From NCBI RefSeq assembly GCF_900168195.1, contig NZ_FUYX01000002.1, forward strand, positions 69,501 to 133,500: a stretch of 64,000 nucleotides of DNA. Direction: 5' to 3'. The position numbers and the translations under genes are program-made. How positions within the stretch are numbered: the stretch's first letter is position 1; every line of letters starts with the position of its first letter. This stretch comes from Allobosea thiooxidans. Lineage in GTDB: Bacteria; Pseudomonadota; Alphaproteobacteria; Rhizobiales; Beijerinckiaceae. Positions 12,629-55,494 of the stretch are shown in pieces. The notes below the pieces were generated by a model. That model worked only from the letters and a program-made list of their open reading frames with translations. It was not told the DNA's origin and made no database searches.

Positions 12629-13354
12629 TCAGACCGCGAGGGGACGCTTCGCGAGCATGTAAATCTGGGCGTAGCCTTCCTTGATCGCCGCCGTGATCTG
12701 GTCGAGGCGGCGGTCGATGTGCTTTTCGAGCAGCTCGATGCAGGCCGCTTCGTCGCGGGCCTTGAGGCTCGTCAGCACCGCGCGGTGTTCGGCCTGGGTC
12801 TTCGAGCGGTTGATGCGGTCCATGTCGATCCAGCGCACGAAACGGATGCGCGCATTGACGTTGCGCAGCACGCGCAGCATCTCGGCATTGTCGGACATCG
12901 CCATGAGTCCCTCATGGAAGGCCTCGTCGAGCTCGACGAGCTCGACCGCGCTGCGTTCGCCGGGGTCGGGGCCGGTCCGGTCGAGGAAGGCGATCAGCGC
13001 GTCGATGTCGGCGTCCTTGGCGCGGCCGATGGCCAGCCGCGCCGCCGACACCTCGAGCGCCTTGCGCAGCTCGTAGAGGTCGAAGATCTCGTGCGCGTCG
13101 AGTTCGCGGCAGAAGAAGCCCTTCCCCGGCGCGAAGCGCAGGAAGCCCTCGGTCTTCAGCCGGTTCAGCGCCTCGCGCAGCGGCGTCCGGCTGACGCCGA
13201 GGCGCTTGGCGATGTCGCCCTCGTTGAGGCGTTCGCCCGGCTTGAACTCGTAGCTCACGGCCATCGCCTTGAGCTGTTCGTAGACGCGGTCGACGACGCT
13301 ATCGGAACTGCTCTCCACGACCACTCCCGTCGATGCATGCAAGCCGGAACACAT
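12629..13354 (-). CDS. GntR-family regulator, FCD subfamily
   Basis: A DNA-binding protein of about 241 residues. The winged helix has the FCD-family signature GVSRTPLREALNRL; the helical C-terminal domain has the metal-binding Asp/His set (ELDEAFHE, EHRAVLTSL, EKHIDRRL). It is the last gene of the minus-strand amino-acid operon and 40 bases after the racemase. ATG 13354 is one candidate start; GTG 13318 has a better-spaced GGGAG and would shorten the N-terminus by 12 residues. It probably controls this operon and the divergent ABC importer in response to a carboxylate or amino acid. Confidence 0.88.
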   Translation of the reverse strand: MCSGLHASTGVVVESSSDSVVDRVYEQLKAMAVSYEFKPGERLNEGDIAKRLGVSRTPLREALNRLKTEGFLRFAPGKGFFCRELDAHEIFDLYELRKALEVSAARLAIGRAKDADIDALIAFLDRTGPDPGERSAVELVELDEAFHEGLMAMSDNAEMLRVLRNVNARIRFVRWIDMDRINRSKTQAEHRAVLTSLKARDEAACIELLEKHIDRRLDQITAAIKEGYAQIYMLAKRPLAV

Positions 13355-13394
13355 CTCCCTATACGGCCAGGGAGAACCCTCTGGCAACGCGCCG

Positions 13395-14141
13395 TCAGCC
13401 GAAGCTGCGCGGGCGCAGGCCGGCATGAAACCAGGTGATCATCGAATAGATGTCGTAGACCGGCAGCCCCACCGCGGCCTGCAGCGCGGCGGCGTAGGGC
13501 GGCATGTTCGTGCATTCGAGCACGATCGCGTCGATGTCCGGGTTGCTGGCGACCAGGGCCTTGCCGGCTTCGACGACGTCCTGCTCGGCGAGCGCCACGT
13601 CCATGTCGTCCTTCTCGGCCTTGATCAGCACGCGGAAGAACTCGCGGCCGTTCTCGGTGCCGATGGTCGGGGTATCCAGCGGCACGCCGGCGCCTTCGAG
13701 ATGGGCCGGCGTCAGCGTCGAGCCCGACACGGTGACGAGCCCGACGCGCTTGCCCGGCGGCAGCGTGGCCTGCACCCACGGCACCTGCATCAGCGAGGAG
13801 GTCGCGACCGGCACGCCGACCGCTGCGGCGATCTCCTTCTGGAAGATCGACAGGAAGCCGCAATTGGTGGTGATCGCCTCGGCACCGAAGCGCACGAGTT
13901 CCTTCGCGGCGTCGATGAAATCAGGCAGCAGGCCGGCCGCCCCCTTGAGGACGACCTTCTCCGGGCTCGCTCCGGTCACGACCTTGTAGAGGACCGGGAA
14001 GGGCCAGGTTCCGGCATTGCCCATGTCGCCATGGATGCGGGGAAAGCGGGCTTCCAGCATCAGGATGCCGAGCGGGGCGCCGTAAAGGGCCTTGCCGCCC
14101 TTGGCGATCCGGGCTGCGGGCGCTGCGATATGGGCTGTCAT
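13395..14141 (-). CDS. aspartate/glutamate/hydantoin racemase-family protein
   Basis: A 248-residue protein of the two-cysteine Asp/Glu racemase superfamily. The two catalytic cysteines expected of cofactor-independent racemases are at Cys94 (TTNCGF) and Cys210 (LECTNMPPY). ATG 14141 is preceded by CAGGAGATCGCC, a well-placed ribosome site; a further Met 18 bases upstream lacks one. It lies 24 bases after the DadA-like gene in the same operon. A racemase next to a D-amino-acid oxidising flavoprotein suggests conversion of an imported L-amino acid (or hydantoin-like compound) to the D form. The family also includes decarboxylases and isomerases, so the reaction is inferred. Confidence 0.82.
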   Translation of the reverse strand: MTAHIAAPAARIAKGGKALYGAPLGILMLEARFPRIHGDMGNAGTWPFPVLYKVVTGASPEKVVLKGAAGLLPDFIDAAKELVRFGAEAITTNCGFLSIFQKEIAAAVGVPVATSSLMQVPWVQATLPPGKRVGLVTVSGSTLTPAHLEGAGVPLDTPTIGTENGREFFRVLIKAEKDDMDVALAEQDVVEAGKALVASNPDIDAIVLECTNMPPYAAALQAAVGLPVYDIYSMITWFHAGLRPRSFG

Positions 14142-14165
14142 GGCGATCTCCTGGAGCAAGCGGTT

Positions 14166-15440
14166 TTAGAGATAGCGGCGCGGGTCGAAGGGCGCGAGGT
14201 CGATCTCGGGCTCGCGGCGCGCAAGCAGCTGGGCGACGAGGCGGCCGGTCCGGGCGGACCCGACCAGGCCGACATGGCCATGCCCGAAGGCATAGATCAC
14301 ATCGCCCGTGGCACGCGCCGTGCCGATGCAGGGCCGTCCGTCCGGCATGCTCGGCCGGTGGCCGAGCCAGACCTTGATCCGCTCCGGCGCGATGGAGCGG
14401 GGCAGCTCGGGGAACAGGCCGATGAGATGATCGCGCAGGATCTCGGCCCGCCGCCAGTCCGGAGCGGCCTCGAGCCCGGCGATCTCGACCTGCCCGGCGG
14501 CGCGCAGGCCGCCATCCATCGGGTTGACCACCATCTTGACGTCGGAGGCGAGGAAGCTGCCACGCGGCGCAACCTCGGGATCCTCGATGACGACGTGATA
14601 GCCGCGCTCGGTTTCGAGTGGCAGCCGGTCGCCGATCGTGGCGCAGAGCGCGGCCGAATGAGCGCCGGCCGCGACCACGGCCCGGTCGCAGGCGATGTCT
14701 CCGGCGGCGGTGCGCACGGCCTTCAGGCGACCGCCCTCGACGACGAAGGCGCGGGCCGGCGTTGCGACGAAGCGCGCTCCGCACGCCGCCGCATGGGCCG
14801 CCAGCGCGGTGACATAGGCACCCGGGTCGCGGCAGCGGCCGGCTTCCTCGACCAGTATCCCGAAGCCGTAGCGCGGATGGAGATGCGGCTCGCGTTGGCG
14901 CAGCTCTTCGGCCGACAGCTCCAGCCAGTCGATGCCGACGCGCCGGCGGATGGCCCAGGCGAGGCTGTCGGCCTCGAAGACGGCGCGCGAGGTGTAGACC
15001 TGGAGCAGCCCCTGGCGCTCGATCAGTTGCGGGCAGCCGGCTTCGGCGGCGAGCCGCGCATGCAGGGCGGGAGCATTCTCGAGCAGGCTGCGGAGCGCGA
15101 TGGCCGTCCGCTCCAGCTTGGCCGGTGTCCATCCCGACCAGAGATAGCGCAGCAGCCATGACCATACGCGCGGCAGATAGCGCCAGCGCAGGGCCAGAGG
15201 TCCGAGCGGGTCGCGCAGATAGCCCGGCACCTTCCGCCATGCGCCCGGCTCCGCCGGCGGAATGACCGAATGCGACGACAGCCAGCCGGCGTTGCCGTAG
15301 CTTGCGGCCTGCTTGCCGCCGCTCGGCTCGGGGTCGATCACAGTGACCCCATGGCCGTCGCGCAGCGCTTCGAGCGCACAGGCGATGCCGACGGCGCCAC
15401 CGCCGATGACGGCGACGTGCAGGGGGGAGACCCCGCTCAT
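14166..15440 (-). CDS. FAD-dependent D-amino-acid dehydrogenase-like oxidoreductase (DadA family)
   Basis: A 424-residue flavoprotein of the DAO superfamily. The N-terminal dinucleotide fold VIGGGAVGIACALEA (about residues 11-25) is followed by the DadA-like segment QAASYGNAGWLSSHSVIPPA, and the C-terminus has the FAD-contacting GHRPSMPDGRPCIG and GHGHVGLVGSARTG segments. Its start overlaps the ThDP-enzyme stop in ATGA, so translation is coupled. It likely deaminates a D-amino acid to an imino/2-oxo acid at the membrane, passing electrons to quinone. The RidA protein in the operon would help hydrolyse the imine. Substrate unknown. Confidence 0.88.
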   Translation of the reverse strand: MSGVSPLHVAVIGGGAVGIACALEALRDGHGVTVIDPEPSGGKQAASYGNAGWLSSHSVIPPAEPGAWRKVPGYLRDPLGPLALRWRYLPRVWSWLLRYLWSGWTPAKLERTAIALRSLLENAPALHARLAAEAGCPQLIERQGLLQVYTSRAVFEADSLAWAIRRRVGIDWLELSAEELRQREPHLHPRYGFGILVEEAGRCRDPGAYVTALAAHAAACGARFVATPARAFVVEGGRLKAVRTAAGDIACDRAVVAAGAHSAALCATIGDRLPLETERGYHVVIEDPEVAPRGSFLASDVKMVVNPMDGGLRAAGQVEIAGLEAAPDWRRAEILRDHLIGLFPELPRSIAPERIKVWLGHRPSMPDGRPCIGTARATGDVIYAFGHGHVGLVGSARTGRLVAQLLARREPEIDLAPFDPRRYL

Positions 15441-17104
15441 TCCGCCGCGACCGCTGCGGGCAGGAAATCCCGGGCATGCGACTGGGCGCGCGGATCGAGC
15501 AGGCAGTGCAGGATCGCGGGCTTGCCCGAGGCGACGGCGCGCTCGAAGGCCGGCGCGAACTCCTCGGTGCGCTCGACGCGCTCGCCGTGGCCGCCGAAGG
15601 CGCGGGCATAGAGCGCGAAATCCGGATTGACGAGCTGCGTGCCGACGACGCGGCCCGGATAATCGCGTTCCTGATGCATGCGGATCGTGCCGTACTGGCC
15701 GTTGTCGAGGACGATCACCACGATCGCCGCGCCGTATTGGACGGCGGTGGCGAATTCCTGCCCGTTCATCAGGAAGCAGCCGTCGCCGGCGAAGGCGAGG
15801 ACCGTCCGGCCGGGGTGCTGGCGCTTGGCCAGGACGGCCGCCGGAATGCCGTAGCCCATCGAGCCCGAAGTCGGGGCGAGCTGCGCGGCGAAGGCGTGGA
15901 AGCGATGGTGGCGATGCAGCCAGCCGGCGTAATTGCCGGCGCCGTTGCAGATGATCGCGTCCTGCGGGAGCCGGTCGCGCAGCCAGGCGATGAGCTGGCC
16001 GTACTGGAAATCGCCGGGCAGCTGCCGCGGATCCTGCGTCCAGGCGAGATAGTCGCGATGCGCCTGCGCGGCTGCGCCCTGCCATGCGATCGCGGGGGGC
16101 GTGGCGAGGCTCTCCAGCGCCGCGACGAAGGCTGAGGGGGCGGCCTGGATGGCGAGCGTCGGCTGATAGACCCGCCCGAGCTCTTCGGAACCCGGATGGA
16201 CATGGATCAGCTTCTGACGCGGCACCGGAATGTCGAGCAGCGTGTAGGAGCTGGACGGAATCTCGGACAGGCGCCCGCCCAGCAGAAGCACGAGGTCGGC
16301 CTCGGCAATGCGGGCCTTGAGCCTGGGATCCGGCCCGATCCCGAGATCGCCGGCATAGTTGGGATGGTCGGCATCGAACAGGGCGGCGCGCCGGAAGGAG
16401 GTCGCGACCGGCAGGTCGAAGCGCTCTGCGAAGCGCGCGAAGGAGGCCGTCGCCGCCGCGTCCCAGCCAGAGCCGCCGATGATCGCGACGGGCCGCTTCG
16501 CGTCGGCGAGCAGCATCGAGAGCCGCTCCATGTCGGCAGGTGCGGGCCAGGCCCGCGCCGGCTCCACGCGCGGCGCGTCGGCCACCGCTGCCGTCTCCGT
16601 CAGCATGTTTTCCGGCAGCGCGATCACCACCGGCCCCGGTCGACCTTGCATGGCGACACGGAAGGCGCGCGCGACGAGCTCGGGAATACGGGCGGGGTCG
16701 TCGATCTCGACCGTCCATTTGGTGATCGAACCGAAAACGGCGCGATAATCGAGCTCCTGAAAGGCCTCGCGCTCGCGCATGGCGGTGTCGACCTGCCCGA
16801 CGAAGAGGATCATCGGTGTCGAATCCTGCATGGCGATGTGGACGCCATGCGCCGCGTTGGTGGCGCCGGGGCCGCGCGTCACGAAGCAGATGCCGGGCCG
16901 GCCGGTCAGCTTGCCATAGGCCTCGGCCATCATCGCAGCGCCGCCCTCGGCCCGGCAGATGACGACGTCGATCGCCGCATCGTGCAGGGCGTCGAGCGCC
17001 GCGAGATAGCTCTCGCCGGGGACGCAGGTGATGCGCTCGACCCCCTGGCGCAGGAGCTGGTCGACGAGGATCTGGCCGCCGGTGCGGCTGTTCTGAAGGG
17101 TCAT
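15437..17104 (-). CDS. thiamine-diphosphate-dependent enzyme, acetolactate-synthase-like
   Basis: A 555-residue ThDP enzyme with the three classical domains. The cofactor-activating glutamate is Glu53 (CRAEGGAAMMAEAYG). The central domain has GGRLSEIPSSSY, and the ThDP/Mg motif starts at Gly440-Asp-Gly and continues to DNGQYG. It is coupled by ATGA overlaps to the aminotransferase before it and the flavoprotein after it. No small regulatory subunit follows, so a catabolic 2-oxo-acid decarboxylase or carboligase is more likely than branched-chain acetolactate synthase. It probably consumes the 2-oxo acid made by the aminotransferase or flavoprotein. Confidence 0.85.
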   Translation of the reverse strand: MTLQNSRTGGQILVDQLLRQGVERITCVPGESYLAALDALHDAAIDVVICRAEGGAAMMAEAYGKLTGRPGICFVTRGPGATNAAHGVHIAMQDSTPMILFVGQVDTAMREREAFQELDYRAVFGSITKWTVEIDDPARIPELVARAFRVAMQGRPGPVVIALPENMLTETAAVADAPRVEPARAWPAPADMERLSMLLADAKRPVAIIGGSGWDAAATASFARFAERFDLPVATSFRRAALFDADHPNYAGDLGIGPDPRLKARIAEADLVLLLGGRLSEIPSSSYTLLDIPVPRQKLIHVHPGSEELGRVYQPTLAIQAAPSAFVAALESLATPPAIAWQGAAAQAHRDYLAWTQDPRQLPGDFQYGQLIAWLRDRLPQDAIICNGAGNYAGWLHRHHRFHAFAAQLAPTSGSMGYGIPAAVLAKRQHPGRTVLAFAGDGCFLMNGQEFATAVQYGAAIVVIVLDNGQYGTIRMHQERDYPGRVVGTQLVNPDFALYARAFGGHGERVERTEEFAPAFERAVASGKPAILHCLLDPRAQSHARDFLPAAVAAE

Positions 17105-18324
17105 GACAGAATCTCGCAGGCGCGGGTGATGTGCGCGCAGGCCTCGCGCAGGCTGTCCTCGGAGGCGGCATAGGAAATGCGGAAATAGGGCGCGAGGCCG
17201 AAGCAGCTGCCGGGAACGACGGCAACGTCGTGCTGCTCCAGCAGATAGCGGCAGAAGGCGGCGTCGCTATCGATCAGCGTGCCATCCGGAGCCCTGCGGC
17301 CGATCAGCCCGGCGCAGCTCGCGAAGGTGTAGAAAGCCCCTTCCGGCTTGCGGCAGGTGATGCCGTCGATCGCGTTCAGGGCGTCGACGACAAGGTCGCG
17401 GCGGGCCTGAAAGGCGAGGCGGCGCTCGGCCAGGATTTCCTGGGGGCCGTTGAGGGCCTCTACGGCTGCAGCCTGGCTGACGGAGCAGGCCATGGAGATC
17501 TGGCTCTGGACCACGGCCATCGCGGCGATCAGCGATTTCGGGCCGCCGGCATAGCCGATGCGCCAGCCCGTCATCGCGTAAGCCTTGGAAACGCCGTTGA
17601 CGGTGAGGGTGCGCGCCTTGAGCGAGGGCTCGATCTGCGCCGCCGTGACGAAAGCCAGCCCGTCATAGACGAGGTGTTCGTAGATGTCGTCCGACATCAG
17701 CCAGACATGCGGGTGGCGCAGCAGAACCTCGGTGATCGGCCGCAGATTCGCCTCCGAATAGGCGGCGCCGGAGGGGTTCGACGGCGAGTTCAGCAGCAGC
17801 CAGCGCGTGCGCGGCGTGATGGCGCGCTCCAGATCCTCCGCTGCGAGGCGGAAACCGTTCTCCTCCCGGCAGACCACGTCCACGGGCGTCCCGCCGGCGA
17901 TGCGGACGATGTCGGCATAGGTCGTCCAGTAGGGCGCGGCGAGGATGACCTCGTCGCCCGGGTCGAGGCTCGCCATGAAGGCGTTGTAGAGAATGGCCTT
18001 GGCGCCGGAGCTGACCGTGACCTCGTCCGGCGCGTAGGAAAGCCCGTTCTCGCGGCGGAATTTCTCGACGATCGCGGCCTTCAGCTCGGGCGTGCCTTCG
18101 AGTGGCGGATACTTCGTCTTGCCAGCGCGGATCGCCTGCTCGGCGGCCTGCTTGACGTTGTCGGGGGTGTCGAAATCGGGCTCGCCGGCGCCGAGCACGA
18201 TGACGGGCCGGCCCTCGCGCTTCAGCCGCGCCGCCGCGGCCCCGATCTTCAGGATCTCGGAAACGCCGATCGATCCGAGCCGCCCGGCGGGGCGAAAATC
18301 GCTCTGCTGCGTGGTTCCGTCCAT
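17101..18324 (-). CDS. PLP-dependent class I aminotransferase (AspC/AatA-like)
   Basis: A 407-residue fold-type I aminotransferase. Lys247 in NGVSKAYAMTGWRIGY is the Schiff-base lysine; Asp212 (SDDIYEHLVY) binds the pyridine nitrogen; LNSPSNPSG and the C-terminal YFRISYAASE arginine motif are in place. The GAGEPDFDTP and TKYPPLEG segments point to the prokaryotic aspartate/prephenate (I-gamma) branch. It lies 29 bases after ridA and overlaps the ThDP gene by four bases. It presumably transaminates the amino acid taken up by the divergent importer, giving a 2-oxo acid. Confidence 0.92.
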   Translation of the reverse strand: MDGTTQQSDFRPAGRLGSIGVSEILKIGAAAARLKREGRPVIVLGAGEPDFDTPDNVKQAAEQAIRAGKTKYPPLEGTPELKAAIVEKFRRENGLSYAPDEVTVSSGAKAILYNAFMASLDPGDEVILAAPYWTTYADIVRIAGGTPVDVVCREENGFRLAAEDLERAITPRTRWLLLNSPSNPSGAAYSEANLRPITEVLLRHPHVWLMSDDIYEHLVYDGLAFVTAAQIEPSLKARTLTVNGVSKAYAMTGWRIGYAGGPKSLIAAMAVVQSQISMACSVSQAAAVEALNGPQEILAERRLAFQARRDLVVDALNAIDGITCRKPEGAFYTFASCAGLIGRRAPDGTLIDSDAAFCRYLLEQHDVAVVPGSCFGLAPYFRISYAASEDSLREACAHITRACEILS

Positions 18325-18353
18325 GAAAGCCTCCCCTGCGAATGCGCCCGCCG

Positions 18354-18704
18354 CTAGGCCAGCGCGACCGCGATCACCTCGATGCGATGTGCCGGATCGG
18401 CGAGCTCGACCTTGCCGCAGGCGCGGGCCGGCGTCTGGCCAGGGACGACCCAGGCGTCGTAGACGCGGTTCATCGCATCGAAATCCTCCATGGATTTCAG
18501 CCAGATCTGGACGCTGACCAGCCGGGATTTGTCGGTCCCGGCCCGGCTAAGCATGTCGTCGACCTTCGCCAGGGCCTCGCGGGTCTGCTGGGCGATGTCG
18601 CCGGCCTTGTCGTCGGCGACCTGGCCGGCCAGGAAGACGAGCCCGCCGGCGGCGACGGCGCGGCTGCGGCGGGCGTTCTGATCGATGCGGGTGATGGCGG
18701 TCAT
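18354..18704 (-). CDS. RidA-family enamine/imine deaminase
   Basis: A compact 116-residue YjgF/YER057c/UK114 protein. Arg94 (PARACGKVE) and Glu109 (HRIEVIAVA) match the substrate-binding arginine and glutamate of active RidA enzymes; LVFLAGQVADD is the family's early glycine-rich strand. RidA proteins hydrolyse reactive enamines and imines to keto-acids, protecting PLP enzymes. Placement between a hydroxyacid dehydrogenase and an aminotransferase, in an operon with an imine-producing flavoprotein, fits that role. Confidence 0.9.
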   Translation of the reverse strand: MTAITRIDQNARRSRAVAAGGLVFLAGQVADDKAGDIAQQTREALAKVDDMLSRAGTDKSRLVSVQIWLKSMEDFDAMNRVYDAWVVPGQTPARACGKVELADPAHRIEVIAVALA

Positions 18705-18727
18705 GGCAGTTTCGTCTCCAGGGCGGG

Positions 18728-19645
18728 TCAGCGGCCGGTCGCCGCGATGCGGCGGCAGTGATCGAGTGCGGCGCCGATCAGATTGTCGCTCGCCTCGGGC
18801 GTCCGGAACGCGGAATGGGCGGAAAGCGTGACGTTCTCCAGCGTGGTCAGCACATGGCCTTCCGGCATGGGCTCGATCGCGTAGACGTCGAGGCCGGCGT
18901 GCCGGATCTGGCCGGACCGCAGCGCCTCGACCATGGCATCCTCGTCGACGAGGGCGCCGCGCGCCGTGTTGACGAGGATCGCTCCGGGCTTCATCGCCGC
19001 AATCCGTTCGCGCGTGATCAGGCCGCGGGTCTCATCCGTCAGCAGGAGATGCAGCGAGACGACGTCGCTCTCCGCCAGCACGGTCTCGAGCGACACGAAC
19101 GAGACGCCGTCATGGCTGCGCGGCGTCCGGTTCCAGGCGATGACCTTCATCCCCGCCCCGCGCGCCAGCCGCGCCACCTCGGCCGCGATGCCGCCGAAGC
19201 CGACGAGGCCGAGCGTCTTGCCGGTGAGCTGCACGCCGTCGGTGCGCAGCCACTGCCCGGCGCGCATGCCCCGGTCCATCCGCGCAAATCCCTTGGCGGC
19301 GGCCCACATCAGAGCGAAGGCGCATTCGGCGACGGCCGTGTCGCCATAGCCCTTGACGATATGCACGGTGATGCCGTGCTCCGCGAGCTCGTCCGGGTTC
19401 ATGTAGCTGCGCGGACCGGTACCCAGGAAGACGACGTGCTTGAGGCTGCGGCACTGCCTCGCAATCTCCGTCGGGAGATGGGTGTGGTCGATGATCGCGA
19501 GCTCCGCGTCGCCGAGCAGGCCGGGCAGCTCCTGCGAGGTGACTGACGGGTTGCGGTTGATCGTGAGATCGGGATCGCCAGCCCGGCTGAGCTTCTCGGT
19601 GACGGCGCTCAGCGTCTCGTTCGCATCGACAAAGACCGCACGCAA
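18728..19645 (-). CDS. D-isomer-specific 2-hydroxyacid dehydrogenase
   Basis: A 305-residue NAD-dependent dehydrogenase. The Rossmann motif is GLVGFGGIAAEVARLA; the catalytic trio is present as Arg in NTARGALVDE, Glu in DVYAIEPMP and His in SAHSAFRTPEA. The coding frame begins with a TTG codon at 19645, placed six bases after GGGAGAA; no better start is available. This leader gene of the seven-enzyme/regulator operon would interconvert a 2-oxo acid and its D-2-hydroxy acid. The substrate-binding domain is too divergent to name one. Confidence 0.9.
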   Translation of the reverse strand: MRAVFVDANETLSAVTEKLSRAGDPDLTINRNPSVTSQELPGLLGDAELAIIDHTHLPTEIARQCRSLKHVVFLGTGPRSYMNPDELAEHGITVHIVKGYGDTAVAECAFALMWAAAKGFARMDRGMRAGQWLRTDGVQLTGKTLGLVGFGGIAAEVARLARGAGMKVIAWNRTPRSHDGVSFVSLETVLAESDVVSLHLLLTDETRGLITRERIAAMKPGAILVNTARGALVDEDAMVEALRSGQIRHAGLDVYAIEPMPEGHVLTTLENVTLSAHSAFRTPEASDNLIGAALDHCRRIAATGR

Positions 19646-19707
19646 ATTGGTTCTCCCTCAAAAATGACAACCGCGCCGCCATACGGGCGCAGGATAGAGT
19701 GCAGATT

Positions 19708-19795
19708 TGTATTCAGGTTTGAATTTGCGGCGCAAGCCGAGGCGGGCGCGGGGCGGTCATGCTAAAATGCGGCCTTGCATGTCGATCTGAATACA
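19708..19795. promoter_or_regulatory. widely spaced inverted repeat in the divergent promoter
   Basis: TGTATTCAG at 19708-19716 and its exact reverse complement CTGAATACA at 19787-19795 flank the centre of the intergenic region. The left copy is also part of a local palindrome, ATTCA-GGTT-TGAAT, at 19711-19724. These are candidate operators for the operon's GntR regulator, which could loop the DNA and control both directions. Seen in sequence; the binding protein is inferred. Confidence 0.5.
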
Positions 19796-19861
19796 GAAAT
19801 AGTCCCCGAGCGTGCCGGTCAGCGTGCCGGCCGAAAACCGGAAAAAAGCAGGGGATTGGCC

Positions 19862-20701
19862 ATGAATCGCAGGGATGCCTTCGTCGTCGCATTCGCAGGT
19901 GCCGCGCTCGCCGCGAATGCAGCGCCCGCGCAGGCCCAGGCGCAACCGTCCGAATCGACGCTCGACAGGATCAAGCGCAGCGGGGTGATCCGCGTCGCCG
20001 TGATCGTCGGCCAGGAGCCCTACTTCCATAAGGATCTCGCCAGCGGCAGCTGGTCCGGCGCCTGCATCGACATGGCCAACGACATCGCCGCCAAGCTTTC
20101 CGCCAAGGTCGAATATGTCGAATCGACCTGGGGCAACCAGATCCTCGACCTGCAGGGCGGCAAGGTCGATCTCGCCTTCGCGGTGAACCCGACGCCGGAG
20201 CGGGCGCTCGTGATCGACTTCTCGACGCCGATCCTGGTGCATTCGTTCACGGTCATCACCAAGAAGGGCTTCGCGAAGCCGGAAAGCTGGGCCGAGCTCG
20301 ACAAGCCGGAGGTCAAGATCGCGGTCGATATCGGCTCGACGCATGAGCTGATCGCACGGCGCTACTGCCCGAAGGCCACCATCCTCGGCTTCAAGAGCCG
20401 CGACGAGGCGATCCTCGCCGTGGCGACCGGGCGCGCCGATTGCAACGTCTCGCTTGCCGTGCTCGCGGTCTCGACGCTGAAGAAGAACCCCAATCTCGGC
20501 GCGCTCGCGATCCCGCGGCCGCTGCTGACGCTGCCGACGAATATGGGCATCCGGGCCGAGGCGGACCGGCGCTACCGGGACTTTCTCAGCGCCTGGGCCG
20601 ACTACAACCGCGCCATGGGGCAGACGCGCGAATGGATGCTCGCCGGCTTCAAGCCGCTCGGGCTGACGGCCGAGGATATTCCCGCCGAAGTGCAGTTCTG
20701 A
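19862..20701 (+). CDS. polar amino-acid ABC transporter solute-binding protein
   Basis: A 279-residue family 3 binding protein. The N-terminus MNRRDAFVVAFAGAALAANA has a twin arginine and hydrophobic stretch, cleaved probably after AQA. The mature protein has the family's opening LDRIKRSGVIRVAV, the GACIDMANDIAAKL segment and DLAFAVNPTPERALVIDFS, which mark amino-acid binders. ATG 19862 starts the signal peptide; a longer in-frame start at 19775 adds only polar residues. The permease gene follows after 13 bases. Expression probably opposes the minus-strand catabolic operon from a shared promoter region. Confidence 0.92.
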   Translation: MNRRDAFVVAFAGAALAANAAPAQAQAQPSESTLDRIKRSGVIRVAVIVGQEPYFHKDLASGSWSGACIDMANDIAAKLSAKVEYVESTWGNQILDLQGGKVDLAFAVNPTPERALVIDFSTPILVHSFTVITKKGFAKPESWAELDKPEVKIAVDIGSTHELIARRYCPKATILGFKSRDEAILAVATGRADCNVSLAVLAVSTLKKNPNLGALAIPRPLLTLPTNMGIRAEADRRYRDFLSAWADYNRAMGQTREWMLAGFKPLGLTAEDIPAEVQF

Positions 20702-20714
20702 GCGGTTCCCGGCG

Positions 20715-21377
20715 ATGTATGTTTGGGATTTCTCGGCGCTCGGCCCCTATTGGGGGCTGATCGGCCAGGGACTCGGCATCACGGTGCTCTACACCGTGAC
20801 CACCGTGGTGGCGGGGCTCGTCGTCGGGCTGGTTATCGGCATCGCGCGGACGGCAGGGCCGCGCTGGCTGTCGCCGCCCTTGCGGGCCTTCATCGAGATC
20901 TTCCGCTGCACGCCGCTGCTCGTCCAGCTGGTCTGGATGTACTACGCCCTGCCGGTCCTGATCGGGGTCGACATGTCGGCCTCGATGGCCTGCTTCATCA
21001 CGCTGTCGCTCTATGCCGGCTCGTTCTACGCGGAGATCTTCCGCGGCGGCATCGAGGCGGTGGATCGCGGGCAGTGGGAGGCGGGCCGGGCGATCGGCAT
21101 GCGGCAAGGGCGGATCTTCCGCCGCATCGTCCTGCCGCAGGCGATCCAGGTGATGATCCCGTCCTTCATCAACCAGACGATCCTCCAGCTCAAGAACACC
21201 TCGCTGGTCTCGGTCGTCGCGGTCGGCGACCTGCTCTATCAGGGTACCGTCATCACCGCGGCGAGCTATCGCCCGCTCGAGGTCTACACGGTCATCGCCC
21301 TGGTCTATTTCGTGGTTCTTTTCCCGCTGACCCTGGTCGCCGACCGGGTCGAGCAGAAGATGGGGGCGCATCGATGA
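20715..21377 (+). CDS. amino-acid ABC transporter permease (HisM/GlnP type)
   Basis: A 220-residue permease with about five membrane segments. The [20 protein letters not shown] segment and the EAA loop ([20 protein letters not shown]) are diagnostic of polar amino-acid permeases, as is [17 protein letters not shown]. Only one permease is encoded, so it likely works as a homodimer. Its stop overlaps the ATPase start in ATGA. Confidence 0.93.
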
Positions 21378-22147
21378 ACGCTCGACCCGCTACCCTTTCC
21401 GCGACCGGGATCCATAAATCATACGGCTCGTTCCAGGTGCTCAAGGGCGCTTCGCTCACTGTCGAGCGCGGCGACGTGGTGACGCTGATCGGTGCGTCCG
21501 GCTCCGGCAAGTCGACCTTCCTGCGCTGCATGAACCTGCTCGAGTTGCCCCAGGAGGGGACGCTCGTGGCAGGCCGCCACAGCTTCGCCTTCGGCAAGGG
21601 GCAGAAGGCGCCGAACGATGCCGCGCTCGCGCCCCTGCGCCGCGACGTCGGCATGGTCTTCCAGCACTTCAACCTGTTCCCGCACATGACGGCGCTGCGG
21701 AACATCATGGAAGGCCCGCTGCAGGTGAACGGCATGACGCCGGCCGAGGCCGCCGAACTCGGCCGCGACCTGCTCGCCAAGGTCGGGCTCGCCGACAAGG
21801 CGGACGCCTTTCCCGCCAAGCTGTCCGGCGGCCAGAAGCAGCGCGTCGCCATTGCCCGCGCGCTGGCGATGAAGCCCGATGTGATGCTCTTCGACGAGGT
21901 CACCTCGGCGCTCGATCCGGAGCTCGTCGGGGAGGTGCTGAACGTGGTGCGCAACCTGGCGGTCGAAGGCATGACGATGATCCTCGTCACCCATGAGATG
22001 GCCTTCGCCGCGGATGTATCGCATCGCGTCGGCTTCATGAACGACGGCGTTCTGGCGGAGATCGGCCCGGCGGAAGAGATCTTCCGCCGGCCGCAACATC
22101 CGCGCCTCGTCAGCTTCCTCGAACGCTTCAACAGGCCGGCGGGCTGA
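21374..22147 (+). CDS. amino-acid ABC transporter ATP-binding protein (HisP/GlnQ type)
   Basis: A 257-residue ATPase. Walker A is GASGSGKST, the signature [15 protein letters not shown], Walker [15 protein letters not shown], and the switch histidine is in LVTHEMAFA. The [16 protein letters not shown] string is typical of the polar amino-acid subfamily. It is the last gene of the three-gene importer operon, closed by a hairpin at 22170. Confidence 0.95.
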
Positions 22148-22512: not shown

Positions 22513-23388
22513 ATGCCCGGACATGCTCTTTTGACCGCGCAGACGGTCGAGGACTGCATCATCGACCAGGGCTGGGAGCGTTATACAGCCGAGGATCACG
22601 CCATCTGGCGTGTGCTGTTCGAGCGCCAGCAGCGGACCCTGAGGGGCCATGTCTGCCAGGAATATCTCGACGGCCTTGCGGCGCTGGGCATCGGCCCCGA
22701 AGGCGTGCCGGATTTCGCAGGGATGAACGCGCGGCTGCGGCGGCTGACCGGCTGGGAGGTGGTGGCGGTGCCGGGGCTCATCCCGTCACGCCCCTTCTTC
22801 CAGATGCTGGCCAACCGCCAGTTTCCGGCCGGCACCTTCATCCGCAGCCGCGAGCAGCTCGACTATCTCGAGGAGCCTGACATCTTCCACGATGTCTTCG
22901 GCCATGTGCCGCTGCTGACCAACCCCGCCTATGCCGATTACATGAACGAATATGGCCGGATCGGGCTGGTCGCCGTCGAGACCAGGGGCGTGAAGTTCCT
23001 CGCCCGCCTCAACTGGTACACCATCGAATTCGGTCTGATCCGCAAGCCCGAGGGCATCCGCATCTACGGCGCCGGCATCGTCTCGTCCTTCGGCGAGGCA
23101 AGCTATGTGGTGCAGGATCCTTCCGCCCACCACCTGGCCTTCGATCTCGAGCGCGTGCTGCGCACCGGCTATTACATCGACGATTTCCAGGCGAGCTATT
23201 TCGTCATCGACCGCTTCGAGGACCTGTTCGACCTGCTCAGGGGCACCGATTTCACCACCCGTTTCGACGAACTGCGCGCCCTGCCGGGCCACACGCCCTT
23301 CGAGATCCTGCCGCAGGACGTGGTCATCCGGAAAGGCACCGGCCATTACTGGCGTGACTTGCCGGCAGCGAAGACGAAACTGAAGTGA
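22513..23388 (+). CDS. phhA: phenylalanine 4-monooxygenase
   Basis: A 291-residue pterin-dependent aromatic amino-acid hydroxylase, the usual length for bacterial single-domain enzymes. The iron ligands are His126 and His131 in FHDVFGHVPLL and Glu172 in WYTIEFGLI; upstream, GLIPSRPFFQMLANRQFP is the family's pterin-side signature. ATG 22513 follows CAGGAGCGAAAGCG. It converts phenylalanine to tyrosine with oxygen and tetrahydropterin. No pterin-4a-carbinolamine dehydratase (phhB) is nearby. The preceding amino-acid importer may or may not serve it; a hairpin separates them. Confidence 0.96.
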   Translation: MPGHALLTAQTVEDCIIDQGWERYTAEDHAIWRVLFERQQRTLRGHVCQEYLDGLAALGIGPEGVPDFAGMNARLRRLTGWEVVAVPGLIPSRPFFQMLANRQFPAGTFIRSREQLDYLEEPDIFHDVFGHVPLLTNPAYADYMNEYGRIGLVAVETRGVKFLARLNWYTIEFGLIRKPEGIRIYGAGIVSSFGEASYVVQDPSAHHLAFDLERVLRTGYYIDDFQASYFVIDRFEDLFDLLRGTDFTTRFDELRALPGHTPFEILPQDVVIRKGTGHYWRDLPAAKTKLK

Positions 23389-24848: not shown

Positions 24849-25637
24849 TCAGCCGCGCATCTCCGCGGGCAGTTCGGTGCCGTGGAACTTCTTGTAGATC
24901 GCGTTGAGCTTGCCGTTCTTCAGGTTCTGCCCGATCCAGGCATCGAGCTTCTCGAGCAGCTTGGGTTCGCCCTTCTTCACGCCGATGGCGAGGTCGAAAT
25001 TGGTGATCGTGACCTTGGGCTCGAAGGGGCGCGACGGCGCCTTGACGCCGATCTGCGAGACGATCGTCGCCGAGGTCGCGACGCAGTCCGCCTGGCCGGA
25101 GACAGCGGCGGTGACCATCGTCGCGTCATCCTCGTAGCGGGCGAGCTTGAGGTCGCGCTCCTTCATGTTGGTCAGCGTCGTGTCTTGGGTGGTGCCGCGC
25201 GAGACGGCGATCGTCTTGCCCTTCAGATCCTCCCAGCTCTTCGCCTCGACCGACTTCAGGCAGCCCACGACCGACTGCAGCGCGGCATAGGGCTTGGAGA
25301 AGTCGATGACCTTGGCGCGCTCGGGCGTGACCGACAGCGTCGAGATGATGATGTCGGCCTTGTTGGTCTGGACGTTGGGGATGCGGGTCGCACCGGTGGT
25401 CTGGACGAATTCGAGCTGCAGGCCCCAGTCCTTGGCGAGCAGCTCGGCCGTCTCGACATCCGAGCCGGTCGGCTTCATGGCGCTGTCGATCATGCCCGAG
25501 GGCGGGATCGCGAGATCGGTCGCGATGCGGATCTTGCCGGCCTTCGTGATGTCGTCGAGCATGTCGGCGCGGGCGGCCTGGCCGGCGCAGGCGAGCGCCG
25601 TCGTGCCGAGCAGGGCAAGCGTGAGAAAGCGTTTCAT
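24849..25637 (-). CDS. amino-acid-type ABC transporter solute-binding protein
   Basis: A 262-residue family 3 binding protein with a clear Sec signal peptide (MKRFLTLALLGTTALACAGQ, cleaved about ARA-DM). The mature part has ITKAGKIRIATDLAIPP, ADIIISTLSVTPERAKVIDFS and a closing NAIYKKFHG, all standard for polar amino-acid binders. It lies in an operon with two permeases, an ATPase, a dehydrogenase and sugar-type enzymes. The ligand could therefore be an amino acid, an amino-sugar derivative or a small hydroxy acid. Confidence 0.92.
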   Translation of the reverse strand: MKRFLTLALLGTTALACAGQAARADMLDDITKAGKIRIATDLAIPPSGMIDSAMKPTGSDVETAELLAKDWGLQLEFVQTTGATRIPNVQTNKADIIISTLSVTPERAKVIDFSKPYAALQSVVGCLKSVEAKSWEDLKGKTIAVSRGTTQDTTLTNMKERDLKLARYEDDATMVTAAVSGQADCVATSATIVSQIGVKAPSRPFEPKVTITNFDLAIGVKKGEPKLLEKLDAWIGQNLKNGKLNAIYKKFHGTELPAEMRG

Positions 25638-25664
25638 CCTTGGGTCTCCTTCCCGTTTTGGTCG

Positions 25665-26414
25665 TTAGAGCCCGGTTCCGACGAACTGGGCGAGTTCCGG
25701 CGTGGCCGGGTTCGACAGGATCGAGGCACTTCCGGCCTCGTGGACCCTGCCGGCGTGCATGAACACCACCTGATCGGCGATGCCCCGTGCGAACCCCATC
25801 TCATGGGTGACCATGACCATGGTCATGCCGTCGGCGGCGAGCTGCTCGATGACCTTGAGCACCTCGCCCGTCAGCTCCGGGTCGAGCGCGGAGGTGACCT
25901 CGTCGAACAGCATCACCTTGGGCTGCATGGCGAGCGAGCGGGCGATCGCCGCGCGCTGCTGCTGGCCGCCGGAGAGCTGTTCCGGATAGGCGTCGAGCTT
26001 CTCGGACAGGCCGACCTTGGCCAGCATCGCCTTGGCGAGCTCGCGGGCCTCGGCCTTCCTCACGCCCTTCACCGAGACCGGCGCCAGCGTGATGTTCTGC
26101 TCGATGGTGAGATGCGGGAACAGGTTGTAGCTCTGGAAGACGATGCCGACATCCTGGCGCAGGGCCCGCAGGTCGATATCAGCGGCGTCGACGCGGTGTT
26201 CGCAGACGCGGATCTCGCCTGAATCGATCCTCTCGAAGCGGTCGATGCAGCGCAGCGCCGTGCTCTTGCCTGAGCCGGAGCGCCCGATCAGCGCCAGCAC
26301 CTCGCCGCGCGCGACGGTGAAGCTGACGCCGTCGAGCACCTTCAGCGGGCCGAAGCTCTTATGGACCTTGTCGAGGGCGACGATGGGGCGTTGGTTGAGG
26401 CGTTCCTGGCTCAT
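25665..26414 (-). CDS. amino-acid-type ABC transporter ATP-binding protein
   Basis: A 249-residue ATPase: Walker [11 protein letters not shown]-loop [13 protein letters not shown], signature [15 protein letters not shown], Walker [15 protein letters not shown] and switch His in MVTHEMGFA. The first serine of the usual G-x-SG-x-GKST loop is preceded by Arg, a common variant. The frame extends to a GTG at 26423, three codons upstream; ATG 26414 is chosen for spacing. It energises the two permeases encoded just upstream. Confidence 0.94.
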
Positions 26415-26429
26415 GGGTTTCACATCTCG

Positions 26430-27098
26430 TCAGGCCGGCATCAGCTTCGCGCGGCCGACGCCCATGCGGCGCTCGAGGCGCCGGCTGAGGAGCGAGATCG
26501 GGAAGCAGAGCGCGAAATAGATCAAGGCGATGATCGCGTAGATCAGGAAGGGCTCGAACAGCGAGTTGTTGATGATCTGGCCGGAGCGGGCGAGCTCGAC
26601 GAAGCCGACCACCGAGGCCAGCGAGGTGTTCTTGATGATCTGCACCATGAAGCCGACGGTCGGCGGCGTGGCGATGCGCACGGCCTGGGGCAGGATGACC
26701 TTGATCATGCGCTGGGTGCGGCTGAGCCCCAGCCCTTCGGCCGCCTCCCATTGCGGGCGCGGCACGGCCTGGATGCAGCCGCGCCAGATTTCGCCGAAAT
26801 AGGCGCCGACATAGATCGTCAGCGAGGCGCCGGCCGCCCAGAGCGGCGTGATCGCGAGGCCGAGCGCCGAGAGTCCGAAATAGCCGAGGAACATGATCAC
26901 CAGCAGCGGCGTGCCCTGCACGAGCTGGACATAGGCACCGCTGGCGAGCCGCACGGCCTTGTTCGGCGAGACGCGGGCGAGCGCGATCAGGAAGCCGACG
27001 ATCCCGCCGCCGATCAGGGCGATGGTCGAGAGCCCGATGGTCCAGAGCGCGCCCTGGCCGAGGAAGAAGAGATGGTTCGCGTTGAGTGAGCCGCCCAT
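26430..27098 (-). CDS. amino-acid-type ABC transporter permease
   Basis: A 222-residue permease of the HisQM family. The segment VQGTPLLVIMFLGYFGLSAL and the EAA loop QWEAAEGLGLSRTQRMIKVI are clear, as is NTSLASVVGFVELARSGQ. It follows the other permease by 9 bases, and the pair probably forms a heterodimeric channel. Confidence 0.94.
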   Translation of the reverse strand: MGGSLNANHLFFLGQGALWTIGLSTIALIGGGIVGFLIALARVSPNKAVRLASGAYVQLVQGTPLLVIMFLGYFGLSALGLAITPLWAAGASLTIYVGAYFGEIWRGCIQAVPRPQWEAAEGLGLSRTQRMIKVILPQAVRIATPPTVGFMVQIIKNTSLASVVGFVELARSGQIINNSLFEPFLIYAIIALIYFALCFPISLLSRRLERRMGVGRAKLMPA

Positions 27099-27107
27099 GA
27101 CCGACCT

Positions 27108-27791
27108 CTAGAGCGGCGTGCCGAGGCGCCGGCGGCGCGGGAAGAGGACGAGCCCCAGCGCCCAGAAGGCGGCGCGCAGGACGAGCGAGAGCGCGATGTA
27201 GCCGAGTGCGACGAGGATATAGGTCTCGAAGGCGCGGTAGGTGTCGGACTGGACGTAGTTGGCGACCGCGGTGAGCTCCTCCGCCGAGATTTGCGAGGTG
27301 ATGGAGGAGGCGAGCATCAGCAGCACGAACTGGCTGGTCAGCGACGGATAGACCTTCTCGATCGCCGGCAGCAGGATGACGTGCCAGTAGATCTGGAAGC
27401 GCGACAGCGCGAGGCCTTCCGCCGCCTCGATCTGGCCGGGCGGGATCGACTCGAAGCCGGCCCTCATGATCTCCGCGGTATAGGCGCCGACATTGATGGC
27501 GAGTGCTGCCGCGGCCACCGAGAAGGCCGAGAATTTGAAGCCGATGCTCGCCAGCCCGAAATAGACCAGGAAGATCTGGACGAGCAGCGGCGTGTTGCGG
27601 ATCGTCTCGACGTAAGCAGCGCAGAGCCCGGCGATGAGGCGGTTGCGGCTGCCGCGGCCGACCGCGCAGAGCGTGCCGACCGCACCGCCGACCAGGATCG
27701 CCAGGAAGGCGAGCTCCAGCGTCATCACTGCGCCGTCGAGGAAGAGCGGCCAGCGCTCGAGAACGACGGAGAAGTCGAGGTCGAGACCCAT
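27108..27791 (-). CDS. amino-acid-type ABC transporter permease
   Basis: A 227-residue HisQM-type permease with the segment IRNTPLLVQIFLVYFGL and the EAA loop QIEAAEGLALSRFQIYWHVI. It begins 8 bases after the dehydrogenase stop, so importer and dehydrogenase are expressed together. It pairs with the following permease, which is only moderately similar. Confidence 0.94.
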   Translation of the reverse strand: MGLDLDFSVVLERWPLFLDGAVMTLELAFLAILVGGAVGTLCAVGRGSRNRLIAGLCAAYVETIRNTPLLVQIFLVYFGLASIGFKFSAFSVAAAALAINVGAYTAEIMRAGFESIPPGQIEAAEGLALSRFQIYWHVILLPAIEKVYPSLTSQFVLLMLASSITSQISAEELTAVANYVQSDTYRAFETYILVALGYIALSLVLRAAFWALGLVLFPRRRRLGTPL

Positions 27792-27799
27792 CGCCGCCG

Positions 27800-28693: not shown

Positions 28694-28730
28694 GTTCCGT
28701 TCTTTCGGCATTGTCTCTGGAATCGGAGCC

Positions 28731-54659: not shown

Positions 54660-54719
54660 TCGAGGCCCGCGGCGTGCGTCGGCACGGGCGGGCGCGCCTC
54701 GTCGCGATTATGGAATGTT

Positions 54720-54736: not shown

Positions 54737-54744
54737 ACGATGCA

Positions 54745-55434: not shown

Positions 55435-55494
55435 GGCGGCGCTGTCGCCCCGCCTTTGCCACCATCCACCCACTTCGATCCCGAGAAACCTGCC

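What the first reader, a model, noticed from the sequence alone, without database searches (positions are those of the whole stretch)
12629..22147. Racemase, D-amino-acid oxidase-like, RidA, aminotransferase, ThDP enzyme and hydroxyacid dehydrogenase in one operon, divergent from an amino-acid importer
The seven minus-strand genes are separated by at most 40 bases and three are joined by ATGA overlaps. Together they could import an amino acid, convert it to a 2-oxo acid by two routes (transamination, or racemisation plus oxidation with RidA clearing imines), then decarboxylate or carboligate it, or reduce it to a D-hydroxy acid. I cannot match this to a named pathway.
Basis: inference. Interest (0 to 1): 0.66.

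Follow-up and report, generated by a model that had tools for sequence, protein, structure and literature searches.

The report
Regulated operon for acidic amino-acid breakdown
A real bacterial gene cluster appears to import an amino acid, turn both of its mirror-image forms into the same keto acid and then decarboxylate that keto acid; related bacteria share parts of it and a matching DNA switch, but its exact food molecule is still unproven.

Summary
Six enzyme genes and a GntR regulator lie on the minus strand (12629-19645), divergent from an ABC importer (19862-22147). The set is conserved: 19 of 80 racemase-centred loci carry all ten genes; FAD oxidase plus racemase occur in 80 of 80. The thiamine enzyme is not acetolactate synthase (312 bits, cut-off 538) but a PRK08199 protein (903, cut-off 539).

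New here: (1) a conserved operator, TGTATTCAGnnnnnAATG, in two inverted copies (one base off in each) in the divergent promoter; its core lies near the dehydrogenase in 40 of 42 loci that have that gene, and a related site lies beside the regulator gene in distant clusters. (2) The thiamine enzyme nests among chromosomal paralogues that co-occur with, and often adjoin, a glutarate CoA-transferase-like gene. I infer decarboxylation of a dicarboxylic 2-oxo acid; 2-oxoadipate is the leading guess.

Against a fixed pathway: the aminotransferase is missing from most loci, the enzyme's very nearest chromosomal kin do not adjoin the transferase, racemase orthologues stand alone in the same genus, and the importer's home paralogue sits beside hydroxyproline-type genes. 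Substrate unproven. New variant of a known kind.

The parts
18728..19645 (-). D-isomer-specific 2-hydroxyacid dehydrogenase (305 aa, TTG start); NADPH preference inferred from AWNR after strand 2 of the cofactor fold
   Evidence: Pfam 2-Hacid_dh_C 3e-59; NTARGA.VDE and LSAHSAFRTPEA in 41 of 41 relatives read without a stop (of 42 with the gene), AWNR[TS]P in 39 of 41; cofactor reading is recalled knowledge
18354..18704 (-). Rid-family imine deaminase; best PDB matches include the Rid2 members PSPTO_0102 and PA5083
   Evidence: arginine after the TPxR motif in 31 of 31 relatives (30 by pattern, L079 by eye)
17101..18324 (-). Class I aminotransferase, AatB-like
   Evidence: best PDB match 6f35 'Aspartate aminotransferase B', 623.9 bits; NF004769 aspartate transaminase 533.7 bits, below its cut-off of 617
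15437..17104 (-). ThDP enzyme of subfamily PRK08199, inferred 2-oxo-dicarboxylate decarboxylase
   Evidence: NF006052 903 bits, cut-off 539; tree and column comparison
14166..15440 (-). FAD-dependent D-amino-acid dehydrogenase/oxidase (DadA-like)
   Evidence: Pfam DAO 4.8e-54; NF001933 193 bits, below its cut-off of 383
13395..14141 (-). Two-cysteine Asp/Glu/hydantoin racemase-fold protein, subfamily PRK07475
   Evidence: NF005679 322 bits, cut-off 231; TTNCGF and LECTNM in 80 of 80 relatives; fold search
12629..13324 (-). GntR-family regulator with FCD domain (start at GTG 13324 inferred; ORF opens at ATG 13426)
   Evidence: Pfam GntR 4.9e-18, FCD 1.7e-24
19707..19725 (+). Operator copy 1, TTGTATTCAG + 5 + AATT (consensus ends AATG)
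   Evidence: the only exact match of TTGTATTCAGNNNNGAAT in the genome
19778..19796 (-). Operator copy 2, inverted, CTGTATTCAG + 5 + CATG on the minus strand (consensus ends AATG)
19862..20701 (+). Periplasmic amino-acid-binding protein of the importer
   Evidence: best PDB matches are reconstructed ancestors of cyclohexadienyl dehydratase, then amino-acid-binding proteins; Arg of TPER and Asp of GRAD in 40 of 40 relatives, 39 by pattern and L039 by eye (their role in holding the alpha-carboxylate and alpha-amine is recalled)
20715..21377 (+). Importer permease
   Evidence: Pfam BPD_transp_1; TIGR01726 88.3 bits, cut-off 42.2
21374..22147 (+). Importer ATPase
   Evidence: Pfam ABC_tran

Best explanation
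A substrate-inducible module for using an acidic (dicarboxylic) alpha-amino acid, best guess 2-aminoadipate, in both mirror forms. The divergent ABC importer brings the amino acid in. The AatB-like aminotransferase converts the L form to the 2-oxo acid. The DadA-like flavoenzyme oxidises the D form to an imino acid, which the Rid protein hydrolyses to the same 2-oxo acid, and the two-cysteine racemase links the two pools. The PRK08199 thiamine enzyme decarboxylates the 2-oxo acid (2-oxoadipate to glutarate semialdehyde), feeding the cell's glutarate/lysine pathway encoded elsewhere. The 2-hydroxyacid dehydrogenase reduces surplus 2-oxo acid. The GntR/FCD regulator binds paired TGTATTCAGnnnnnAATG-like sites between the two divergent operons. 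Shown by sequence: gene families, order, conservation, operator conservation, kinship of the ThDP enzyme with glutarate-linked enzymes. Inferred: every reaction, the substrate, which protein binds the operator, the sense of regulation. My confidence by layer: import plus amino-acid catabolism 0.8; ThDP enzyme is a decarboxylase of a dicarboxylic 2-oxo acid 0.47; substrate is 2-aminoadipate 0.22.
For: Families. Closest structures of the aminotransferase are aspartate aminotransferases B and A. Rid near Rid2 proteins; Rid2 and Rid3 proteins used iminoarginine released by the FAD D-arginine dehydrogenase DauA in vitro (PMC5619798, passages). ThDP: the operon clade sits inside chromosomal PRK08199-like enzymes. 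Of nine loci looked at, L172, L176 and L177 hold an aldehyde dehydrogenase and a CaiB-type transferase beside the ThDP gene, and L170, L172 and L176 an acyl-CoA dehydrogenase; in L172 the aldehyde dehydrogenase scores 810 for L-piperidine-6-carboxylate dehydrogenase (cut-off 730) and the transferase's best NCBIfam match is succinate--glutarate CoA-transferase (581, cut-off 750). Across 149 genomes of the family the ThDP enzyme (E <= 1e-150, 105 genomes) and that transferase (E <= 1e-120, 102 genomes) co-occur in 91 (Fisher p 5e-13, not corrected for kinship), with starts within 4 kb in 56 of the 91. 226 of 231 columns conserved at 90% or more in both 16 operon and 17 chromosomal enzymes are the same residue; positions 43, 166, 305, 539 and 542 differ. 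HglS, the known 2-oxoadipate enzyme (function recalled), is absent from the window's genome. In L116 the ThDP slot of the enzyme operon is empty but a 59% relative follows the importer ATPase. Operator.
Against: The operon enzyme's nearest chromosomal kin in the tree (L010, L013, L018, L012) do not start within 4 kb of the transferase gene, though their genomes hold one; of the 17 chromosomal rows 12 do (read). No semialdehyde dehydrogenase in the operon. HglS does not exclude the ThDP gene: 7 of 12 HglS-bearing genomes also have it. The transferase is below its family cut-off in all 149 genomes, so the glutarate reading is itself inferred. L117 has dehydrogenase, oxidase and racemase without a ThDP match. 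The racemase model is closer to hydantoin and allantoin racemases (Z 17.8, 17.3) than to Asp/Glu racemases (15.8). The importer's home paralogue lies with hydroxyproline-type genes. Distant clusters use a different ThDP branch, 24-30% identical.
Confidence: 0.4

Rival explanations
1. A D-glutamate/D-aspartate utilisation system like dgu of Pseudomonas aeruginosa (recalled), with the ThDP enzyme acting on 2-oxoglutarate as an extra branch.
For: Oxidase, Rid protein near PA5083, AatB-like aminotransferase, racemase fold family. Peptidoglycan makes D-Glu common (recalled).
Against: 2-oxoglutarate and oxaloacetate need no dedicated decarboxylase or reductase (recalled metabolism); the ThDP gene is kept in 77 of 80 loci, and of the other three L061 is cut by its contig end and L116 has a 59% relative in the importer operon.
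Confidence: 0.2
2. Same logic, but for an aromatic or other neutral amino acid; the ThDP enzyme is an aryl- or alkyl-pyruvate decarboxylase, and the phenylalanine hydroxylase next door (22513-23388) is part of it.
For: Phenylalanine 4-monooxygenase passes its NCBIfam cut-off and lies 365 bases downstream of the ATPase gene on the same strand.
Against: No phenylalanine hydroxylase match in any of the 80 relatives' loci (flanks of at most 10 kb); ThDP kinship points to the glutarate pathway.
Confidence: 0.16
3. A cyclic imino-acid or hydantoin pathway: the racemase acts on a hydantoin or imino acid and the oxidase on the D-imino acid.
For: Racemase model nearest to hydantoin/allantoin racemases; paralogous racemase and importer lie with dihydrodipicolinate-synthase-like, aldehyde dehydrogenase and FAD genes in the same genome (L175, named by eye) and on a Chelatococcus plasmid (as annotated).
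Against: No hydantoinase or ring-opening family among the operon genes scanned; an aminotransferase and Rid protein suit a primary amine; fold Z-scores do not give function.
Confidence: 0.13
4. Glycine/serine-type chemistry: oxidase makes glyoxylate or hydroxypyruvate, ThDP enzyme carboligates, dehydrogenase is a hydroxypyruvate reductase.
For: Oxidase's best PDB matches include glycine oxidases; dehydrogenase's PDB matches include phosphoglycerate dehydrogenases and glyoxylate reductases.
Against: ThDP matches glyoxylate carboligase only as one of many family members and far below PRK08199; glycine needs no racemase.
Confidence: 0.08

Closest known systems
Arginine transaminase pathway of Pseudomonas aeruginosa (AruH aminotransferase, AruI ThDP decarboxylase) with DauA D-arginine dehydrogenase (AruH/AruI recalled; DauA and Rid from PMC5619798 passages)
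   Same: Aminotransferase, ThDP 2-oxo-acid decarboxylase and FAD D-amino-acid dehydrogenase with a Rid protein converge on one 2-oxo acid.
   Different: The ThDP enzyme scores 250 against the 5-guanidino-2-oxopentanoate decarboxylase model, cut-off 500; here a racemase, a 2-hydroxyacid dehydrogenase and an importer are in the same locus.
dgu locus of P. aeruginosa, D-Glu utilisation (recalled)
   Same: FAD dehydrogenase, Rid protein of the PA5083 kind, amino-acid-binding protein.
   Different: No ThDP enzyme, dehydrogenase or aminotransferase there (recalled); a GntR/FCD regulator here.
Chromosomal PRK08199-like enzymes in the same bacterial family, 12 of the 17 compared adjoining a glutarate CoA-transferase-like gene
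   Same: The operon enzyme nests among these; 226 of 231 shared conserved columns identical.
   Different: Different neighbours: an importer, oxidase, racemase and a dedicated operator. The nearest of these kin are among those that do not adjoin the transferase.
Distant alphaproteobacterial clusters racemase-ThDP'-oxidase (L159, L161, L163-L167), and L178 (Ruegeria pomeroyi megaplasmid: racemase, GntR and ThDP genes)
   Same: Racemase 52-64%, oxidase 29-41% in L159-L167; regulator 47-53% in L159, L161, L164, L165; (C/T)TGTATACAG between ThDP and regulator genes in these four and L178. Four read gene by gene (L161, L163, L166, L167) also carry TRAP importer genes (by eye).
   Different: ThDP of another branch (24-30% identity); no match to the 2-hydroxyacid dehydrogenase, Rid or aminotransferase in L159, L161, L163-L167; no oxidase or TRAP gene annotated in the L178 stretch.

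Membership tests
Biosynthetic acetolactate synthase (IlvB) | NCBIfam TIGR00118 at or above its cut-off of 538 | tested here: not met
   311.9 bits
Biosynthetic acetolactate synthase (IlvB) | Regulatory small-subunit gene beside it | tested here: not met
   Not among the genes called and scanned in 12629-22147
PRK08199 ThDP subfamily | NF006052 at or above its cut-off of 539 | tested here: met
   903.2 bits, residues 4-545
AruI-type 5-guanidino-2-oxopentanoate decarboxylase | NF005712 at or above its cut-off of 500 | tested here: not met
   249.8 bits
2-oxoadipate decarboxylase (proposed) | Activity on 2-oxoadipate | not testable with these tools
   Genomic company only
PRK07475 Asp/Glu-racemase-like subfamily | NF005679 at or above its cut-off of 231 | tested here: met
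   322.2 bits
Two-cysteine racemase | Both catalytic cysteine motifs | tested here: met
   TTNCGF and LECTNM in 80 of 80 relatives; that these are the catalytic cysteines is recalled from the family
Cysteate racemase CuyB | NF052483 at or above its cut-off of 190 | tested here: not met
   33.3 bits
Hydantoin/allantoin racemase | Activity or family model match | tested here: inconclusive
   Nearest by fold, Z 17.8 and 17.3, rmsd 2.9, 205 and 203 residues; no specific sequence-family match
DadA D-amino-acid dehydrogenase | NF001933 at or above its cut-off of 383 | tested here: not met
   193.2 bits; Pfam DAO met at 184.7, cut-off 27.9
Rid imine deaminase | Arginine needed for deamination (position 105 of Salmonella RidA, PMC5619798 passages) | tested here: met
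   Arginine present in the window protein and 31 of 31 relatives (one by eye); placing it at RidA position 105 is by eye, not by an alignment
AatB-type aspartate aminotransferase | NF004769 at or above its cut-off of 617 | tested here: not met
   533.7 bits; 623.9 bits to the solved AatB, 6f35
dgu-type D-Glu operon | Growth on D-Glu dependent on the oxidase | not testable with these tools
   -

The most novel reading that the evidence does not exclude
The PRK08199 enzymes are the missing thiamine-dependent, CoA-free 2-oxoadipate decarboxylases of alphaproteobacterial lysine breakdown, and this operon is a horizontally moving copy turned into a dedicated D/L-2-aminoadipate utilisation system under its own GntR operator.
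Probability: 0.2. Interest if true: 0.62.

Novelty: new variant of a known kind. Interest (0 to 1): 0.42.

Why it matters
If the ThDP enzyme decarboxylates 2-oxoadipate, it fills the step between 2-oxoadipate and glutarate in a large bacterial family in which 12 of 149 sampled genomes have HglS while 105 have a close relative of this ThDP enzyme, and it gives a name to a widespread unnamed enzyme subfamily. The conserved operator makes the regulator's ligand, and so perhaps the operon's substrate, directly testable with a reporter.

Tried and rejected
Acetolactate synthase: rejected by family score and lack of a small subunit. Cysteate/sulfopyruvate: considered because two Bradyrhizobium loci read have sulfopyruvate-decarboxylase-like genes beside the regulator (L051, L042), but both scored below cut-off in L051 (117.9 of 148; 145.7 of 221.5), and in L040 and L046 the SDR gene follows without them, so they look like part of a neighbouring unit. 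Mutual exclusion of HglS and the ThDP gene as proof of function: tested, not found (7 of 12 overlap, Fisher p 0.34). Racemase neighbours in the window's own genus as a substrate clue: 20 of the 41 other loci at 77% or more were fetched; in 20 of 20 there is no match to dehydrogenase, Rid, aminotransferase or ThDP enzyme (32% oxidase matches in 3, importer-like matches of 30-54% in several), and the genes around 15 of those 20 give no common pathway. Importer binding-protein model: mean pLDDT 53, not used. DoeA-like gene near the small-genome locus L167: 414 bits, cut-off 613, not pursued. Operator regulon in the genome: one exact site plus three two-mismatch sites, against three in the backwards control, so no wider regulon seen (the pattern was taken from copy 1 and would not find copy 2). 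Base composition as a sign of gain: operon GC reaches 0.716, but 54001-56000 reaches 0.714, so it says nothing.

Paper searches that found no description of this operon: 0 papers; 0; 1, unrelated; oxoadipate/ketoadipate decarboxylase: 1, unrelated; 117 for four short terms, 15 listed, one relevant; 3; listing and abstract starts seen; 0; 11, 8 listed. PMC5619798 and PMC11286295 were seen as passages. Any statement that something is not in print goes no further than these searches of an open-licence library.

Dropped or chosen rows: one search kept the best 80 of 239 relatives. One search counts only matches above identity limits that I chose (50-80% by gene). One search reads only relatives without a stop in the matched stretch (41 of 42 dehydrogenases, 22 of 23 aminotransferases; GHGHVG of the oxidase in 62 of 80, NGVSKAYAMTGWR of the aminotransferase in 20 of 22). 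One search leaves the long-branch row L180 out of the distant group; the label 'lys' was mine and covers 17 chromosomal rows, of which 12 adjoin the transferase. One search uses coordinates that I transcribed by hand. The 61 operator copies were picked with the pattern TGTAT.CAG, so its invariance is by construction; the AATG part and the k-mer count are not. Many of the 80 loci are Bradyrhizobium and not independent; some are cut by contig ends.

Full report
What is there. The window lies in a 5.37 Mb genome. On the minus strand, read 19645 to 12629, are a D-isomer 2-hydroxyacid dehydrogenase, a Rid protein, an aminotransferase, a ThDP enzyme, an FAD oxidase, a racemase-family protein and a GntR/FCD regulator; on the plus strand are a binding protein, permease and ATPase. 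Gaps between the six enzyme genes are 23, 29, -4, -4 and 24 bases. The regulator probably starts at GTG 13324 (70-base gap) and not at ATG 13426.

Conservation. A scan of the named genome collection with the racemase gave 239 relatives, of which the best 80 were kept as loci, mostly Bradyrhizobium. Of these 80, 19 hold all ten genes in the same order and orientation (a twentieth, L043, is cut inside the importer) and 30 hold only ThDP-oxidase-racemase. Single genes occur as follows: racemase 80, oxidase 80, ThDP 77, regulator 47, dehydrogenase 42, binding protein 40, Rid 31, aminotransferase 23, permease 22, ATPase 22 (above identity limits that I set). Of the three loci without a ThDP gene above 60%, L061 is cut by its contig end, L116 has a 59% relative directly after the importer ATPase, and L117 has none. 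The oxidase-racemase pair is the core, a ThDP enzyme nearly always joins it, and the rest are accessories. No phenylalanine hydroxylase match lies in these 80 loci.

Within the window's own genus the picture is different. A racemase orthologue at 77% identity or more is in 42 of 61 genomes, the window's own included. In 20 of 20 loci fetched out of the other 41 it stands without a match to the dehydrogenase, Rid, aminotransferase or ThDP enzyme, and among the matches listed (E <= 1e-90) no other of the 61 genomes has an oxidase above 54% identity. The operon is thus an accessory in this genus, perhaps gained as a unit from a Bradyrhizobium-like donor (inference from identity and spread; base composition gives no support). 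The racemase family has a life outside it.

A conserved operator. Counting 9-mers without a preset pattern in 40 dehydrogenase-binding protein intergenic regions (the window's and 39 relatives'), CTGAATACA or its complement is in 39. Around it, 61 copies picked with the pattern TGTAT.CAG show a second conserved block five bases on, AATG (A 55, A 61, T 61, G 56 of 61). The window has two copies in inverted, inward orientation, at 19707-19725 and 19796-19778; each departs from AATG by one base (AATT, CATG). With one mismatch allowed, TTGTATTCAG has 4 matches in the window, mean 0.44 in shuffles, and 2 of the 4 are these copies. Among the 80 loci the core motif lies within 700 bases upstream of the dehydrogenase in 40 of 42 loci that have that gene (exceptions L116, L117) and upstream of the first operon gene in 1 of 38 without it (L063, which has the binding protein); 5 further hits fall elsewhere in the 1.59 Mb searched. 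These loci are closely related, so the counts are not independent tests.

The operator reaches further. In distant alphaproteobacterial clusters a (C/T)TGTATACAG site lies between the ThDP gene and the regulator gene in 5 of 5 loci with a regulator: L159, L161, L164, L165 (regulator 47-53% identical) and L178 (annotated GntR, identity not measured). It is absent there in 3 of 3 loci without a regulator match (L163, L166, L167; L167 has a stray hit at 4511 inside another gene). Against this: the short contig L132 (regulator 344 bases from its end) has no site, L116 has regulator and divergent promoter but no site, and 5 Bradyrhizobium loci with a regulator match but neither dehydrogenase nor binding protein have none. 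I infer that the GntR protein binds these sites; no binding was tested.

The ThDP enzyme. It is a PRK08199 member by score (903, cut-off 539) and fails the acetolactate synthase and AruI-type models. Its clade nests inside chromosomal enzymes from the same bacterial family. Of nine loci looked at, which include two more distant home paralogues, L172 (the window's genome), L176 and L177 hold an aldehyde dehydrogenase and a CaiB-type CoA-transferase beside the ThDP gene, and L170, L172 and L176 an acyl-CoA dehydrogenase. In L172 the aldehyde dehydrogenase passes the L-piperidine-6-carboxylate dehydrogenase model and the transferase best matches succinate--glutarate CoA-transferase, below cut-off. 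Over 149 genomes of the family, 105 have the ThDP enzyme at E <= 1e-150, 102 the transferase at E <= 1e-120 and 91 both; in 56 of those 91 the two start within 4 kb (Fisher p 5e-13, without correction for kinship). Twelve of the 17 chromosomal rows in the tree adjoin the transferase; the operon clade's nearest kin (L010, L013, L018, L012) do not, which weakens the transfer of function. The window's genome lacks HglS; in the family 12 of 149 have it, and 7 of these also have the ThDP enzyme, so the two are not exclusive. Comparing 16 operon enzymes with the 17 chromosomal ones, 231 columns are conserved in both groups and 226 carry the same residue. The simplest reading is the same reaction, decarboxylation of a dicarboxylic 2-oxo acid; 2-oxoadipate fits the company. 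This is inference from neighbours. Elsewhere related ThDP genes adjoin aldehyde dehydrogenase genes (Azospirillum L179, Diaphorobacter L183), as a decarboxylase should; the Diaphorobacter one best matches 2,5-dioxovalerate and 2-oxoglutarate-semialdehyde dehydrogenases, below cut-off.

The other enzymes. The aminotransferase's best solved relative is aspartate aminotransferase B (623.9 bits), then A; an AatA of Rhizobium leguminosarum takes C4 and C5 dicarboxylates and also pyruvate (PMC11286295, passages), so such enzymes need not be narrow. The Rid protein's nearest solved proteins include Rid2 members PSPTO_0102 and PA5083, which used iminoarginine released by an FAD D-amino-acid dehydrogenase in vitro (PMC5619798, passages). 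The racemase has both cysteine motifs in 80 of 80 relatives; its model (mean pLDDT 79.6) lies in the Asp/Glu/hydantoin racemase fold, with hydantoin and allantoin racemases (Z 17.8, 17.3) ahead of Asp/Glu racemases (15.8), which speaks against taking the name 'aspartate/glutamate racemase' as a function. The binding protein keeps the arginine and aspartate that hold the alpha-carboxylate and alpha-amine in this family (roles recalled) in 40 of 40 relatives, so an alpha-amino acid is the likely cargo.

Verdict. Import plus two converging routes to a 2-oxo acid is well supported as architecture. Decarboxylation of a dicarboxylic 2-oxo acid is a reasoned inference; 2-aminoadipate as substrate is a guess that can be tested. 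The cluster resembles the AruH/AruI plus DauA arrangement for arginine in logic but is not a member of it. The facts against my reading, namely modular gene content, nearest ThDP kin away from the transferase, standalone racemases, the hydroxyproline-type company of the importer paralogue (L175) and no HglS exclusion, are why confidence stays at 0.40.

Noticed in passing
window 22513-23388: Phenylalanine 4-monooxygenase gene, over its NCBIfam cut-off, 365 bases downstream of the importer ATPase on the same strand; no match in the 80 relatives' loci, so probably not part of the module.
   Followed up: partly
L172 4023-9953: Chromosomal PRK08199-like ThDP gene beside L-piperidine-6-carboxylate dehydrogenase, acyl-CoA dehydrogenase and glutarate-CoA-transferase-like genes: a candidate 2-oxoadipate decarboxylase of lysine breakdown, independent of the operon.
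   Followed up: partly
L175 8082-16137: Second racemase (47%) and importer (43-57%) in the same genome beside a saccharopine-dehydrogenase-like gene and hydroxyproline-type catabolic genes (named by eye); a similar set is annotated on the Chelatococcus plasmid (L181).
   Followed up: partly
L047 1273-2001 (also L049, L072, L073, L092): In five Bradyrhizobium loci a second PRK07475-like racemase gene (about 41% identical) follows the importer ATPase gene.
   Followed up: no
L116 1733-3424: In Pseudochelatococcus the ThDP gene (59%) has moved: it follows the importer ATPase gene instead of sitting between aminotransferase and oxidase.
   Followed up: partly
L117 4535-7461: The Rhodomicrobium locus with dehydrogenase, oxidase and racemase is divergent from a TRAP importer that looks, by eye, like that of the distant clusters (L161, L167): a possible bridge between the two layouts.
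   Followed up: no
L051 11820-12946: Sulfopyruvate-decarboxylase-like alpha and beta genes next to the regulator in some Bradyrhizobium loci, below family cut-offs.
   Followed up: partly
L167 5191-16107: AT-rich (29% GC) small-genome locus: racemase, ThDP and oxidase with a TRAP importer, and a DoeA-like M24 hydrolase gene close by.
   Followed up: no
window 24849-28711: A second amino-acid ABC importer followed by a 2-hydroxy-3-oxopropionate-reductase-like gene.
   Followed up: no
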